Source: Bacteroidales bacterium (GTDB taxonomy: Bacteria; Bacteroidota; Bacteroidia; Bacteroidales; UBA10428). Taken from it: a DNA stretch of 64,000 nucleotides. Each line of letters begins with the position of its first letter. Position 1 is the stretch's first letter. Below the pieces are notes generated by a model. It worked only from the letters and a program-made list of their open reading frames with translations, had not been told where the DNA came from and searched no databases. This document shows, in pieces, positions 26,603-34,079 of the stretch. Position numbers and translations under genes: made by a program. The stretch lies in assembly GCA_016931575.1 (NCBI GenBank), contig JAFGEO010000101.1, positions 1 to 64,000 of the forward strand, written 5' to 3'.

Positions 26603-29600
26603 TTAACTGGCCTTTTTAAACTGTTGGACACAACTTAGCACACAACTGGCAATTTCGGTGTGGTCAAATAATAATTCTTCAATAGATTCTTTCTTTACTG
26701 CCAGAATAGTTGTATTCTCGTTGAAATGAATTGTGTTCATTCCGGCATTCGGGAAAATATTGACGTAATAAAGATTCCTCAATTTTCCAGGCTGGATTTC
26801 TCCCTCCGGGCCTTCAAAATGCATACTCCCTTCCACCATAAAGAATAGGGTGAAATCATTACAATTATGGCCAATATCAAGGCTTGTACCCGCTTTGAAC
26901 CCAACTTCATAAAAGAGCTCAGCAAGATTGATCAGAATATCTTCGGGTATATATTTCAATCTCTCCATCTCCTTTAACAGGTTGAATTTTTCAGTAAGCA
27001 GCAACCTCGATCCTCTTTCAACAATCGATAATGCATCCCTAAGTTCAAACTGCACATCTGGATCGAGCCGTTCCATGATACTTTCAAACAGTTCCGGATC
27101 TCTTTTGTGTACGACAAGGGCAGCAGCCTCACGTAACATGCGGTTGGGGTGAAAAAGGTTTGAAATAAGTTCCTGTGTAAGTTCGAGACCCGGGAGTATG
27201 AGCGCCAGCCGGAGGGCACAAATCCGTGGATAAACCCCCAGAAGATTGTAGTCGCGCATGAGGATCGATGAGATAAGTTCCTCCTTATCCATTTTCTCAA
27301 TAGGGAAGTAATACTGGAGTCTTTGCACACGCTCTTTGGCAGAGATATTCTCAATAATTGGAAATAATACGGGTTTGATGTCTTCCATCACAAACTGGTC
27401 CAGCAACTCGATCGCATGACTGATATCCTCCTCGGAGCCTTTTTCAAGCAACTCCTGGATTTCAAGAATTGTCCGGGAATTATAGGCCAGTGCAAGCAAA
27501 TCAAAGAGTAGCCCGTAACTGGTATTGATCTCATCCACCAGGGAGGCTTTCAATTCGCGATAGGCAGCTTTTGAAGGAAGCGAAATGTAAATAAGGTGGT
27601 TCCATCCCAGTACATGGATCGTACGGACCACAATATTGAGAATCCGGTGGACATTCATAGAATTGGCCTGGAAGTTGGCCTCCTGCAAAGCAGAAATTGT
27701 TGTTGATGTGACCCGCTTGCTTTGGTTTTCCAGTTTGGAAAGCAGGTAGTCCACCGCTTTTGGGGTTGCCACCTTTCCGTAAATTCTGATGGCACGCGAA
27801 AGGATTTTATCATCCGTATTCGGATTGATGAACAGCCGTTCCAGGTAGTCCAGCGCAGGATCTCCGATCTGAACCAGGGCTTCGAATGCATAAGCGTGGT
27901 ATTCCGGAGAACTAAGGAATTCCATGAGCAAATAACTATGGTCCGAACTGCTGATGCGGGCCATGGCCTTTACAGCGGCTATTTTTACGTCGGGCTCAAA
28001 TTCACGGGTCAGATTCACCAGTACCGAGGTATAGGTGACATCCTTTCTGGATCCGATGATCTCAGCGGCAAGGACCCTTTTTGCCACCTGCCTGCTATTC
28101 ATCAGCTCCTCAATATCAACTCCCTCATGCAATAGCTTTTCCCGCTTTTCAAAGTTTTGGATCAGTTTACCCAGAGCAGGAACTGCCTCTTCTGAGGCAG
28201 GGGAAAGTTTCTGTAAATCGGGAAGCAGTCCAAGCAACACCTCTTCCTCAATACACTTCAGAACGTAGGCCTGGACTTCCGGTTGCGGGTTTGCGAGCAT
28301 TCGTTGCAGCCCCTTCTCATAACTCAGCGGCTCGATCAGAGCTGAAAGCTTCATGGCATTGATTACCTTGACCGGATCATCCCCGACAAGTATCTCCCAT
28401 AATTTTTCACTGTATGATTCCGTATATTTCCGGATGGTCCGGTTAATCCTCAGTTTTCGGTAACTGTCCTCCAGTGCTCTGCGGTATCGTTTGATCAGCT
28501 TCACAGCAAAAAAGAACCAAATCAATGAAAGTACAATGCTGGTTGTCAGGTTGACAATTTTATTGTCAAGATTAAATTGCTGAATAAGAAATATCACCCC
28601 CCCGGAAATAAGCAGTCCTAACATGGCTGCAGCACCCTCAATCCTCGGGTAAATGATCTGCAGAAAGCGGATATCCAAACTCCTGTAAAGTGTTCTGGAA
28701 GAGGGCAGCTGAATGGTATTTTTACTGACTTCGTATACCATCTTGTTTATTCCGATCAGGAGTAGTACCGGTAAGGGATGCTTAATGCCTGCCTTTTGCA
28801 GGATGACGATACCGCCGAGGGTAAGCAGCAGGAAGAAAAACACACCCAGAGGCATGATAACCAGGCTGTATGGGGAATCGTAAGAATAGAGGATGCTATG
28901 CACCAGGATTTTATCTGTAAAATAGATCAAGGCATACAACACGGCAATATACAGGACATAATATTTCGAGAAGGTGTCGATCTCAAAATAGTAATCCTGG
29001 AACTCCGTAACGAAGGTATAGTGGAGATGGAATCCGACAATCGCTGATAATATCGTAAAAAGGAGCAGGTTTCGGGTAAACCTCGTCGACCATAATAAAA
29101 AAATGGAAGCCCGAACAGGGACTTTTCTTTCTTTTTTATGATTGAAGGCCTTATTGCGGTTATGAGCGATGTTCGTCAGGACCTGGATAAGGAATAAGCC
29201 AAGCATAAAAAGTGCCGTTAGGACACTTGTGGCATCAAACCCCATGTAAAAGCTTACCAGGAATATCAGTCCGCAACTGGCTATAATCCCACCAATAAAT
29301 CCAAACTCAACCACATTAAAAATCCGCTTGGCCTGCTCCGGAAGAAGAAGTTTTCTGACATATCTCCAAAATGTCAGGAGCAACAATAAATTAACAGGGA
29401 ATACAAGCACCAGACCAATGAATGCAAGCTTTTTATTATCCAGGAATTCTTCAGGAAAAAGATAATAGAACACCAGGTATGCCAGCACAATGGCAGTGAT
29501 CAGTGATATATTGACGAAATGAAAAGATTTGTAGGAGATCCTTTTGTGCAGCACCGTATAAATCCCAAATAAAATAACCCCGAAGGTTCCTCCCAGAATG

Positions 29601-29791
29601 TAGGCCAGGGGGAAATGCTCCCTGAACATCAGGGAATCCTTTTTTCCCCAATATTCAAAATAGTTCGTGTGTGCGATAATGTCAAAACTCCCAAGTACTC
29701 CCCCCAATAAAATGGCAGAAACAAGCAGAAATATAGTAAATCCGGCTTCCTCTTCTTTGATAGCGAGTCTTTTGAGTATGTATTGATACAT
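26603..29791 (-). CDS. NTT/MFS-like membrane protein with HEAT repeats and a cyclic-nucleotide-type domain
   Basis: 1062 residues. About 11 membrane helices in the first 450 residues resemble the nucleotide transporter (NTT/Npt) branch of the major facilitator fold. From about 460 to 900 there are helical HEAT-like repeats (VAKRVLAAEIIGSRKDVTYT, KIAAVKAMARISSSDH). The last ~130 residues resemble a cyclic-nucleotide-binding fold (AGTSLDIGHNCNDFTLFF, MVEGSMHFEG). The FGExAL...R phosphate-binding signature is not obvious, so binding of cAMP or cGMP is doubtful. It starts the minus-strand set and is followed 5 bases later by the TIR/DUF4062-like gene. Confidence 0.75.
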   Translation of the reverse strand: MYQYILKRLAIKEEEAGFTIFLLVSAILLGGVLGSFDIIAHTNYFEYWGKKDSLMFREHFPLAYILGGTFGVILFGIYTVLHKRISYKSFHFVNISLITAIVLAYLVFYYLFPEEFLDNKKLAFIGLVLVFPVNLLLLLTFWRYVRKLLLPEQAKRIFNVVEFGFIGGIIASCGLIFLVSFYMGFDATSVLTALFMLGLFLIQVLTNIAHNRNKAFNHKKERKVPVRASIFLLWSTRFTRNLLLFTILSAIVGFHLHYTFVTEFQDYYFEIDTFSKYYVLYIAVLYALIYFTDKILVHSILYSYDSPYSLVIMPLGVFFFLLLTLGGIVILQKAGIKHPLPVLLLIGINKMVYEVSKNTIQLPSSRTLYRSLDIRFLQIIYPRIEGAAAMLGLLISGGVIFLIQQFNLDNKIVNLTTSIVLSLIWFFFAVKLIKRYRRALEDSYRKLRINRTIRKYTESYSEKLWEILVGDDPVKVINAMKLSALIEPLSYEKGLQRMLANPQPEVQAYVLKCIEEEVLLGLLPDLQKLSPASEEAVPALGKLIQNFEKREKLLHEGVDIEELMNSRQVAKRVLAAEIIGSRKDVTYTSVLVNLTREFEPDVKIAAVKAMARISSSDHSYLLMEFLSSPEYHAYAFEALVQIGDPALDYLERLFINPNTDDKILSRAIRIYGKVATPKAVDYLLSKLENQSKRVTSTTISALQEANFQANSMNVHRILNIVVRTIHVLGWNHLIYISLPSKAAYRELKASLVDEINTSYGLLFDLLALAYNSRTILEIQELLEKGSEEDISHAIELLDQFVMEDIKPVLFPIIENISAKERVQRLQYYFPIEKMDKEELISSILMRDYNLLGVYPRICALRLALILPGLELTQELISNLFHPNRMLREAAALVVHKRDPELFESIMERLDPDVQFELRDALSIVERGSRLLLTEKFNLLKEMERLKYIPEDILINLAELFYEVGFKAGTSLDIGHNCNDFTLFFMVEGSMHFEGPEGEIQPGKLRNLYYVNIFPNAGMNTIHFNENTTILAVKKESIEELLFDHTEIASCVLSCVQQFKKAS

Positions 29792-30829: not shown

Positions 30830-31360
30830 CTACGATTTATGTTCCAGAACTTCGATAATACGTTCCACCGTAAGATCTTTTGCATCCACCACGTATTTTG
30901 CCCTAAGGTAATGATGCTCACAGCGTGACCGGATATCGCGGATATAGAAACGCAACTGCTCATCGGTTTTGTTCATCACAATGGGTCTGTCTACGGTGGC
31001 CTTTTTCAGGCGGCTGACCAGGGTGTCGTTATCCAGTTGGAGGTAGATCACCTCTCCATGCTTTTCGATCAGGTTCATGTTGTCGCAATGGCAGGGGGCC
31101 CCTCCACCCAGGGCGATGACCACATGATCGGTCTGGACCACTTCCAGCAGTGCCTCCCACTCTTTGTTCCTGAACTCGGCATCCCCGACAGCTGTATACA
31201 ATTCGGGGATGGTCATCCCTTCCCGCCTTTCGATAACATCGTCCAGGTCAATAAAATCAAGTCCCAGGCGCTTTGCAAGCTTTCTTCCCATGGTGGACTT
31301 TCCACTGCTCTTATATCCAATTAAAAAATAACGCACTGCCTCTCTGTTTTCTGGTTTCAA
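30830..31360 (-). CDS. aroK: Shikimate kinase
   Basis: 176 residues. The P-loop GYKSSGKST is near residues 14-22. The shikimate-binding DLDDVIERREGMTIPELY and the glycine loop LGGGAPC are also visible. The enzyme phosphorylates shikimate at the 3-OH with ATP, two steps before chorismate. It lies downstream of aroA and aroC on the same strand but is separated from aroC by a terminator-like hairpin at 31424-31454, so it may have its own promoter. Confidence 0.94.
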   Translation of the reverse strand: MKPENREAVRYFLIGYKSSGKSTMGRKLAKRLGLDFIDLDDVIERREGMTIPELYTAVGDAEFRNKEWEALLEVVQTDHVVIALGGGAPCHCDNMNLIEKHGEVIYLQLDNDTLVSRLKKATVDRPIVMNKTDEQLRFYIRDIRSRCEHHYLRAKYVVDAKDLTVERIIEVLEHKS

Positions 31361-31479: not shown

Positions 31480-32799
31480 TTACCTGACTGGTTTCATTGA
31501 CTGGTATGCCACGTGTTGCATATAGGCATCCAGAATGATCAGGGCGGTCTGTGCTTCAACCACAGGCCACATCCTGGCCACGATGGTGGGATCGCGACGG
31601 GTAACAGCAGCGAGATCCTTATCTTCCAGACTAACCTTATCGACGGTATGCTGTGGTTTAGCGATTGTCGGGGTGGGCTTCACGGCAACGCGGGCAACGA
31701 TGTCCTGCCCGGTTGTCAGGCCTCCGGTAATACCACCGGCATTATTGGAATCAAATACAACCTTACCATCCTTGATACGCATGGCATCGTTACACTGGGA
31801 TCCGGTCATGTTGGCCGCTTCCATTCCACATCCTACCTCAACGGCTTTCACGGTACCGATGGCCATCAGACGTCCCAGTTCACCATCAAGCTTGTTGAAT
31901 ACAGGTTCTCCCATACCTGCGGGAACCCCTGTTACCACAACCTCGACGAGTCCGCCGGAAGAATCGCCCTCCTTCATGATCCGGACAATTTCATCGTGCA
32001 TTTTATCGGCCAGCTCTGCATCGGGGCAGAAAAGTTTTGGATTGATCCCGAACCTGGCTTTGATCTCTTCCTCGTCGTAAACCGGCTTTTTAATCTCGGG
32101 GATACGTTTCTCCAGGTCGGCGAGGATCGCAGCCTTTTCGAAAAAGCGCATGCCGCTTTTCAATTTGTCAGAAGCGAAGAGTTCGAGGTATATGGGATCG
32201 TACTGCTTTCGCACCTCGCGGTATGCTGCAGCCTTTTTCTTGATCTCACCGATAGGCATATCCCCCATGCGGATTCCGGCAGCTTCGCGTATGAAAGAAA
32301 CCACCTCAATCCCATGATCCTTCAGGATACGTTTTGCAATGGTACCTGCAGCAACGATGGATGAGGTATACCTTCCACTGAAAAAACCTGCTCCGATGGA
32401 ATCATCGAATTCTCCATATTTCTGGTAGCTGGCATAAGAGGCATGGCCCGGACGGGGGGTGCGGTTTGTCAGCTGGTATTGCTCAATGTGCTCAAAATGA
32501 CGGTCGACATTGGGGATCAGGATCACCAGGGGCGTACCGTTGGTATAGCCCTTATTCTTAAATCCCGGCATGGTGTCTGCCGCATTCACGCCACTATAGA
32601 TGATCGGCACATCAGCTTCGCGACGGGGGGAAGTCAGCTCGCCCTGTCCCGGTTTTCTGAGCATCAGCTCAACATAGATCTCCTCTTCAGTAAACAGGTA
32701 TCCGGGCGGGCATCCCTGTATGTTGATGGAGAGTCCTTCCTGATATGACCCGCCTGCAACTGTTGTCTTGAATAATGTTCCGTGCGTACATCCTAACAT
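31480..32799 (-). CDS. aroC: Divergent chorismate synthase
   Basis: 439 residues, longer than the usual 350-390. The enzyme removes phosphate from EPSP to give chorismate with reduced FMN. Family blocks are visible: LFKTTVAGGSYQEGL, RRPG-like RKPGQGE, TPRPGHASYASYQKYG, EGDSSGG, GVPAGMGEPVF and NNAGGITGGLTTGQ. Key differences exist. The first conserved His of GESHG is Tyr19 in GGSYQEG. The GGRSSARET block is replaced by GAGFFSGRYTSS. The RHDPCV block is RRDPTIV. An insertion of about 65 residues lies near 180-250. His119 of the second motif is kept. It sits between aroA and aroK, so a shikimate-pathway role is likely, although it might have shifted. Confidence 0.85.
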   Translation of the reverse strand: MLGCTHGTLFKTTVAGGSYQEGLSINIQGCPPGYLFTEEEIYVELMLRKPGQGELTSPRREADVPIIYSGVNAADTMPGFKNKGYTNGTPLVILIPNVDRHFEHIEQYQLTNRTPRPGHASYASYQKYGEFDDSIGAGFFSGRYTSSIVAAGTIAKRILKDHGIEVVSFIREAAGIRMGDMPIGEIKKKAAAYREVRKQYDPIYLELFASDKLKSGMRFFEKAAILADLEKRIPEIKKPVYDEEEIKARFGINPKLFCPDAELADKMHDEIVRIMKEGDSSGGLVEVVVTGVPAGMGEPVFNKLDGELGRLMAIGTVKAVEVGCGMEAANMTGSQCNDAMRIKDGKVVFDSNNAGGITGGLTTGQDIVARVAVKPTPTIAKPQHTVDKVSLEDKDLAAVTRRDPTIVARMWPVVEAQTALIILDAYMQHVAYQSMKPVR

Positions 32800-32813: not shown

Positions 32814-34079
32814 TTAGTTATCTTTCTGCATCTGCGCCCCGAGGGCAACAAAGTCATTAAAAAATCCGGGGTAAGTGACTGCTACGGCTTCTGCGGTATC
32901 AACCTCTGTAAGTCCTTCTGCTCCCATTCCGGCGAGGGCCAGCGACATCACCATGCGATGATCGTCATAGCCGTGAACCTGTGTGCCTTTCAGCTTACTC
33001 TTGCGGACAATGAGCCCATCCTCAAATTCCTCGATGTCAGCGCCCATTTTTTTCAGCTCTGTGGTGATGGCACTAATACGGTCACACTCTTTCAGGCGTG
33101 CCTGTGCCACGTTGTAAAGCTTCGTCTGCCCTTCGGCAAAACAGGCCGTGACAGCCAGCGCCGGTAAGGCATCCGGGGTATCGTTCATGTCGATATCCAA
33201 ACCCTTGAGCGGCCTGCCCCTGACCATGACACCCTCCGAAGTATGTTCAAGCTCAACACCCATGGCCTGTAAAAAGTCGAATACCTTCTTATCTCCCTGA
33301 TGATCTGCGAAATCCAGTCCTTTGATAAGCACTTCCGACCGGGTGATCGCAGCAGCACAAAGGGCAAAGGTGGCGGTTGAGAAATCAGCCGGTATCGGCC
33401 TGTCGAAGGCCGTGTATTTTTGCCTGCCCGGAATCCTGAACCAATCAAGTCCTTTTTGTTCAAACTTAATTCCCTGTGCTCTGAGCCAGTCGAGGGTAAT
33501 CTCAATATAAGGCCTTTCATGCAGGTTGTCAACGGTTATTTCCGATGTGCCCTCAGCAAGCGGACAGGCGAACAGGAGGGCTGTAAGGAACTGTGAACTG
33601 ATCCCGTTCACCCGGGTTTGTCCTCCCTTCATCGGTCCCTTTACCGTAAAGGGACATTTTTCATTCTGGCTTTTTACCTGAACCCCCAGATTGCTTAGCG
33701 CGCTCAATAGCGGGGTCATTGGGCGCTTTCGGATCGATGCGTCCCCATCGAAGGTGATTTCCTGGTTGGTAAGGGACGCCAAGGCGCTGAATATCCGGAG
33801 GGATGTTCCTGAATTCGCAACATCTACAAAGCAGGCGAGTTTACTGATCTGACCACCGATGCCATCAATGATCCAGTCGCCATTCTCCTCCCGGATGGTG
33901 GCGCCAAACTCCATAGCAGCCCTGAAGGCTGAGCGTGCATCTGCGGATTCCAGAGGATTTCTGAGGATCGATCTTCCCTGCGCCATGGTAGCAATTGCCA
34001 CCGCGCGGATCGTGTGCGATTTGGAAGCGGGGATGAGGATCTCTCCCTGCAGATTTGATTTTTTTGCCGTGAATATCAC
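32814..34079 (-). CDS. aroA: 3-phosphoshikimate 1-carboxyvinyltransferase (EPSP synthase)
   Basis: 421 residues. The enzyme transfers the enolpyruvyl group of PEP to shikimate 3-phosphate. The phosphate-binding Lys20, Ser21 and Arg25 are visible in SKSHTIRA. The NSGTSLRI loop (about 89-96) and DASIRKRPM follow. Asp303 (TPDALPAL), Glu331 and Arg334 (KECDRI), and Arg375 (DDHRM) match the active-site set. The SKSHTIRA sequence differs from the usual SKSxSNRA and looks closer to archaeal/deep-branching forms. It is 14 bases upstream of aroC on the same strand. Confidence 0.93.
   Translation of the reverse strand: MIFTAKKSNLQGEILIPASKSHTIRAVAIATMAQGRSILRNPLESADARSAFRAAMEFGATIREENGDWIIDGIGGQISKLACFVDVANSGTSLRIFSALASLTNQEITFDGDASIRKRPMTPLLSALSNLGVQVKSQNEKCPFTVKGPMKGGQTRVNGISSQFLTALLFACPLAEGTSEITVDNLHERPYIEITLDWLRAQGIKFEQKGLDWFRIPGRQKYTAFDRPIPADFSTATFALCAAAITRSEVLIKGLDFADHQGDKKVFDFLQAMGVELEHTSEGVMVRGRPLKGLDIDMNDTPDALPALAVTACFAEGQTKLYNVAQARLKECDRISAITTELKKMGADIEEFEDGLIVRKSKLKGTQVHGYDDHRMVMSLALAGMGAEGLTEVDTAEAVAVTYPGFFNDFVALGAQMQKDN

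What the first reader, a model, noticed from the sequence alone, without database searches (positions are those of the whole stretch)
31480..32799. Chorismate synthase with altered catalytic motifs and an insertion
Where canonical enzymes have the first catalytic His in FGESHG, this one has Tyr19 (GGSYQEG). The GGRSSARET block is replaced by GAGFFSGRYTSS, RHDPCV by RRDPTIV, and about 65 residues are inserted near 180-250. His119 and other blocks remain. The gene sits in an aroA-aroC-aroK neighbourhood, so it probably still works, by a changed chemistry or substrate contact. Bacteroides AroC is canonical from memory, so this could be a separate lineage of the enzyme.
Basis: partly seen in the sequence, partly recalled or inferred. 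Interest (0 to 1): 0.7.

Follow-up and report, generated by a model that had tools for sequence, protein, structure and literature searches.

The report
Chorismate synthase lacking its catalytic histidine
This gene belongs to an undescribed, highly conserved branch of chorismate synthase, found here only in uncultivated bacteria, in which a histidine described as present in every known version of the enzyme is always a tyrosine, yet gene losses in related genomes indicate that it still makes chorismate.

Summary
The gene at 31480-32799 (-) encodes a 439-aa PF01264 protein in which the catalytic His of GESHG (N. crassa His17) is Tyr19, within an aroA-aroC-aroK run. The other two catalytic residues, His119 and Asp403, are kept.

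The genome also has a canonical AroC on contig C117. Even so, the evidence favours a working chorismate synthase. Within the family, one genome lost the variant cleanly (aroA then abuts aroK) and keeps canonical aroC. Four others keep aroB-aroD but lack the canonical aroC after aroD, and keep the variant. 29 of 50 genomes from other lineages carry only the variant; 30 of 32 genomes checked have chorismate-using enzymes.

The variant forms one clade (SH-aLRT 100) with fixed G17-S18-Y19-Q20, R402 and a helical insert. Two spirochaete sequences have Tyr and TRRDP but no insert, so those changes probably came first. The aroA-aroC' pair appears to have entered this Bacteroidales family horizontally. 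All 69 database loci are metagenome-assembled.

The GGRSSARET and RHDPC changes matter less, because canonical AroCs also vary there. Activity, and whether Tyr19 replaces His17 as the acid, are untested. I rate it a new variant of a known enzyme.

The parts
31480..32799 (-). variant aroC (439 aa), chorismate synthase of the Tyr19 lineage
   Evidence: ORF; PF01264 318.6 bits, TIGR00033 320.7 bits (cut-off 212)
32743..32745 (-). codon 19, Tyr in place of the catalytic His (N. crassa His17, S. pneumoniae His10)
   Evidence: Tyr in 67/67 relatives with that part present, His in 76/76 canonical AroCs; 1QXO chain residue 1 aligns at model residue 10, i.e. offset 9
32443..32445 (-). codon 119, retained catalytic His (N. 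crassa His106)
   Evidence: invariant in both groups
31591..31593 (-). codon 403, retained catalytic Asp (N. crassa Asp367)
   Evidence: invariant in both groups wherever present
31594..31596 (-). codon 402, Arg in TRRDP (His in RHDP-type, Ser in RSD-type canonical enzymes)
32044..32259 (-). helical insert, about residues 181-252, absent from the Bacteroidota canonical AroCs compared
   Evidence: alignment; AlphaFold2: helices 183-200, 202-209, 219-235, 243-250, block pLDDT 83-96
32560..32586 (-). small insert, residues 72-80 (NAADTMPGF), almost invariant in the lineage
32814..34079 (-). aroA (EPSP synthase), 14 nt upstream, the only EPSP synthase over the TIGR01356 cut-off in the genome
   Evidence: groups with variant-linked aroA of other phyla, not with other Bacteroidales
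30830..31360 (-). aroK (shikimate kinase), downstream
   Evidence: PF01202 134 bits

Best explanation
The gene encodes a working chorismate synthase of a distinct lineage. It converts EPSP, made by the adjacent aroA, to chorismate with reduced FMN, keeping the flavin-side machinery (His119, Asp403, Ser18, Ser141, conserved Arg and Lys). The residue that in known enzymes is proposed to protonate the leaving phosphate (His17) is replaced by Tyr19 in a rebuilt pocket. Shown here: conservation, reciprocal gene loss, operon context, predicted fold. Inferred: that it is active, and on EPSP. Speculative: that Tyr19, perhaps with Arg402, takes over the acid or phosphate-binding role.
For: Reciprocal losses: G042 lacks the variant, with aroA 12 nt from aroK, and keeps canonical aroC; G639, G153, G650 and G638 keep aroB-aroD but lack aroC after aroD (in G638 aroB is partly masked) and keep the variant. 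All 23 family genomes have at least one. 29 of 50 genomes from other lineages have only the variant. In a sample of 32 genomes (31 in which only the variant type was found, plus G000), 30 have chorismate-binding enzymes. Of 42 genomes checked, 41 have exactly one AroA over the cut-off and one has a cut-off fragment. aroA lies directly upstream in 34 of 69 loci. The gene is under strong constraint: median dN 0.109 against 0.305 for aroA and 0.236 for canonical aroC, with synonymous sites saturated. The fold matches chorismate synthases only (Z 28-38; next best 4.2).
Against: No activity has been measured. The residue proposed as the acid for the leaving phosphate is gone. Most family genomes keep both copies, which pure redundancy does not easily explain. 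Absence of canonical aroC outside this family rests largely on draft metagenome assemblies of unknown completeness.
Confidence: 0.82

Rival explanations
1. The protein is a paralog that lost chorismate synthase activity or acts on another substrate, and the canonical AroC on C117 does the work.
For: A canonical aroC exists in a run with aroB and aroD on C117. The catalytic His is replaced. 16 of 23 family genomes keep both types.
Against: Four family genomes have the canonical aroC removed from beside aroD while the variant stays. 29 other genomes have the variant alone. Only one AroA is present per genome, so there is no sign of a parallel pathway.
Confidence: 0.1
2. The two enzymes both make chorismate but are specialised, for example for different redox conditions or flavin supply; the helical insert might give its own flavin reductase activity or a contact with another pathway enzyme.
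For: Both are retained in 16 of 23 family genomes. The variant evolves more slowly than its neighbours. The insert is confidently predicted as helices with invariant residues R197, D201, R218, K222, E230.
Against: There is no direct evidence; bifunctionality is said not to be predictable from sequence (PMC2386126). One genome lost the variant and four lost the canonical form, so neither is indispensable.
Confidence: 0.35
3. The Tyr is only a tolerated drift of a non-essential residue, with no change of mechanism.
For: From memory, His17 to Ala in N. crassa lowers but does not abolish activity (Kitzing 2004, not read here); by comparison the Asp367 mutants lose 300-600 fold (PMC3509576).
Against: Tyr and Gln are fixed across several phyla, which drift would not give.
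Confidence: 0.2

Closest known systems
Canonical chorismate synthase AroC (EC 4.2.3.5; PF01264, TIGR00033), e.g. S. pneumoniae 1QXO, H. pylori 1UM0, Candida lusitaniae 7RCA
   Same: Profile match over the whole length, fold (Z 35-38, rmsd 2.4-2.7 over about 350 residues), His106 and Asp367 equivalents, conserved Ser and Arg positions, place next to aroA and aroK
   Different: Tyr for His17, Gly for the Glu two residues before it, Gln for the following Gly, TRRDPT for GRHDPC, inserts at 72-80 and about 181-252
The genome's own canonical AroC (C117, 331 aa, short type)
   Same: Same family, all catalytic residues present
   Different: Canonical GESHG and GRHD; in a run with aroB and aroD; no helical insert; does not group with the variant in the tree
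Spirochaetota intermediates (G719 L214:533-1723; G731 L266/L267)
   Same: Tyr at the His17 position and TRRDP, directly downstream of aroA
   Different: Keep GES and G/A around the Tyr, keep SGRET/SGRES, have no 65-residue insert; have their own short insert after GESYGGG / GESYAGG

Membership tests
Chorismate synthase (PF01264 / TIGR00033) | Profile match above curated cut-off over the whole protein | tested here: met
   PF01264 318.6 bits (cut-off 27), TIGR00033 320.7 (212), NF003793 325.3 (321)
Chorismate synthase (PF01264 / TIGR00033) | Chorismate synthase fold | tested here: met
   AlphaFold2 pLDDT 84.5, pTM 0.90; only chorismate synthases among the strong structural matches
Chorismate synthase (PF01264 / TIGR00033) | Catalytic His of GESHG (His17 N. 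crassa, His11 M. tuberculosis), described as conserved in all known species and part of the signature (PMC2386126) | tested here: not met
   Tyr19 in the window protein and in all relatives with that part present
Chorismate synthase (PF01264 / TIGR00033) | His106 near the flavin (His110 S. pneumoniae) | tested here: met
   H119, invariant in both groups
Chorismate synthase (PF01264 / TIGR00033) | Asp367 that primes flavin N5 | tested here: met
   D403, invariant in both groups; role from PMC3509576
Chorismate synthase (PF01264 / TIGR00033) | Conversion of EPSP to chorismate with reduced FMN | not testable with these tools
   Indirect support only: reciprocal gene loss and variant-only genomes

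The most novel reading that the evidence does not exclude
A lineage of chorismate synthase performs the phosphate elimination without the histidine described as universal, using a Tyr-Arg pair (or a new loop His, 101 or 104) instead, possibly with a helical lobe that changes how the flavin is supplied, and it spreads between phyla linked to aroA.
Probability: 0.35. Interest if true: 0.72.

Novelty: new variant of a known kind. Interest (0 to 1): 0.58.

Why it matters
Chorismate synthase is a textbook flavoenzyme without net redox change, and a published comparison calls this histidine conserved across all known species (PMC2386126). A natural lineage fixed for Tyr there, and apparently the only chorismate synthase in many uncultivated bacteria, gives a direct test of what the histidine does. 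Spirochaete sequences with Tyr and TRRDP but no insert suggest an order of changes and natural starting points for swaps. It also widens the picture of a pathway pursued as a drug and herbicide target.

Tried and rejected
Chance or error: rejected by fixation across 67 relatives. Sole aroC of the genome: rejected, a canonical copy exists. Contamination as the source of either copy: unlikely, since 16 of 23 family genomes have both types and the flanking genes are collinear. Parallel pathway with a second aroA: rejected, single AroA. RHDPC and GGRSSARET changes as loss of catalytic residues: rejected, canonical types vary there. A wide presence in Bacteroidota: rejected, no genome outside the family among those drawn from the order (247) and phylum (395) showed a full-length match. 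A wide presence in the Aminicenantes phylum: not seen, only the centre genome of 149. Literature search found no description of such a variant, within open-licence PMC papers only. Distances in the predicted active site could not be measured; the stretches at 51-60, 101-120 and 131-140 have low confidence.

Full report
What is there. The ORF at 31480-32799 (-) encodes 439 residues and matches chorismate synthase models over its length: PF01264 318.6 bits, TIGR00033 320.7 bits against a cut-off of 212, NF003793 325.3 against 321. aroA ends 14 nt before its start and aroK begins 119 nt after its stop, all on one strand. His119 (His106 in N. crassa) and Asp403 (Asp367) remain.

How unusual it is. 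In an alignment of 68 variant and 76 canonical sequences, Y19, Q20, G17 and R402 are present in all variant sequences that cover them and in none of the canonical ones. A published comparison states that the equivalent His11 and Asp343 of M. tuberculosis occur across all known species and are part of the signature; the N. crassa mechanism has His17 protonating the leaving phosphate (PMC2386126).

A second copy. The genome holds a canonical 331-aa AroC on contig C117, in a run with a DAHP-synthase-like gene, a prephenate-dehydratase-like gene, aroB and aroD (the first two named by eye from sequence).

Where the lineage occurs. A scan of 84,980 species genomes gave 69 loci at 62-91% identity, all with MAG titles, from Bacteroidales, Armatimonadota/Hebobacteria, Aminicenantes, Hydrogenedentota, Planctomycetota, Spirochaetota and a few others. 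In this family 20 of 23 genomes have it; no genome outside the family among those drawn from the order and the phylum showed a full-length match. About 20 of 247 Spirochaetota do, and only the centre genome among 149 in the Aminicenantes phylum. In the tree the 45 variant rows are one side of a branch with SH-aLRT 100. That tree was a quick search without bootstrap, with few phyla outside those searched and no archaea.

Evidence for function. In the same genus, G042 has aroA directly followed by aroK with the variant missing, and keeps canonical aroC. In G639, G153 and G650 the run of two upstream aromatic genes, aroB and aroD is intact but canonical aroC is absent after aroD; in G153 and G650 the next gene is the relative of the one that follows aroC in G042. 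G638 likewise lacks aroC beside aroD, though parts of that genome are masked. These four keep the variant. So each form has been lost where the other remains. Among 50 genomes of other lineages (one of them, L104, is a second handle on the family's single-contig genome) 29 have only the variant and 21 have both. Of 32 genomes checked, 30 have chorismate-binding enzymes. Each of 42 genomes has an AroA match and 41 have exactly one over the cut-off; the weaker hits are probably MurA. AroB passes its cut-off in 22 of 29, but is missing in several genomes, among them Armatimonadota and Planctomycetota ones.

Constraint. Within the family the variant is 85% identical (median dN 0.109), canonical aroC 69% (0.236) and aroA 63% (0.305); synonymous sites are saturated so no ratio is given. 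The genome sets for the three genes overlap but are not identical.

Transfer. The family's AroA is at best 36% identical to other Bacteroidales AroAs (best 252 bits) but scores 375-464 bits against variant-linked AroAs of other phyla and groups with them (SH-aLRT 99). The nearest variant AroCs are those of Aminicenantes. I infer that aroA and the variant entered this family together.

Intermediates. Two Spirochaetota genomes carry a sister form: GESYGGG or GESYAGG and TRRDPS, without the long insert, downstream of aroA. Only the G719 sequence was in the tree, as sister to the variant clade. The simplest reading is that Tyr and Arg402 came before Gly17, Gln20 and the insert. This is one lineage, so it is not independent evidence that Tyr and Arg work as a pair.

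Structure. AlphaFold2 gave pLDDT 84.5 and pTM 0.90. Only chorismate synthases match strongly. The insert is modelled as helices with good confidence, while loops that probably line the active site are not confident, so I make no claim on distances.

Mechanism. Most likely the enzyme makes chorismate from EPSP in the known way on the flavin side, with a rebuilt phosphate pocket. Which residue, if any, supplies the proton to phosphate is open: Tyr19, Arg402, or an invariant loop His (101 or 104). Retention of both forms in 16 of 23 family genomes suggests some specialisation that I cannot name from sequence.

Noticed in passing
L214:533-1723 (G719) and L266/L267 (G731): Spirochaetota AroC with Tyr at the catalytic His and TRRDP but no long insert; apparent intermediate, downstream of aroA.
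   Followed up: yes
L170, L172-L179 (Hydrogenedentota, Planctomycetota genomes): A second, long-branched canonical AroC type (TAGESHG, LERASARET, RSDxC) coexists there with the variant.
   Followed up: partly
G661, G666, G668, G669, G679: Genomes with the variant aroC and aroA but no AroB over the TIGR01357 cut-off; the early pathway may use another route.
   Followed up: no
G663 (L110, L114) and G866: Two variant aroC copies in one genome.
   Followed up: no
26603-29791 (-): 1062-aa protein with a transporter-like N-terminus and a long C-terminal part; a relative lies near the aro genes in several family genomes (cluster 9). Named by eye only.
   Followed up: no
L130 / L191 (G681): Canonical aroC and the variant lie about 1 kb apart on the same strand, with aroA and aroK upstream.
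   Followed up: partly
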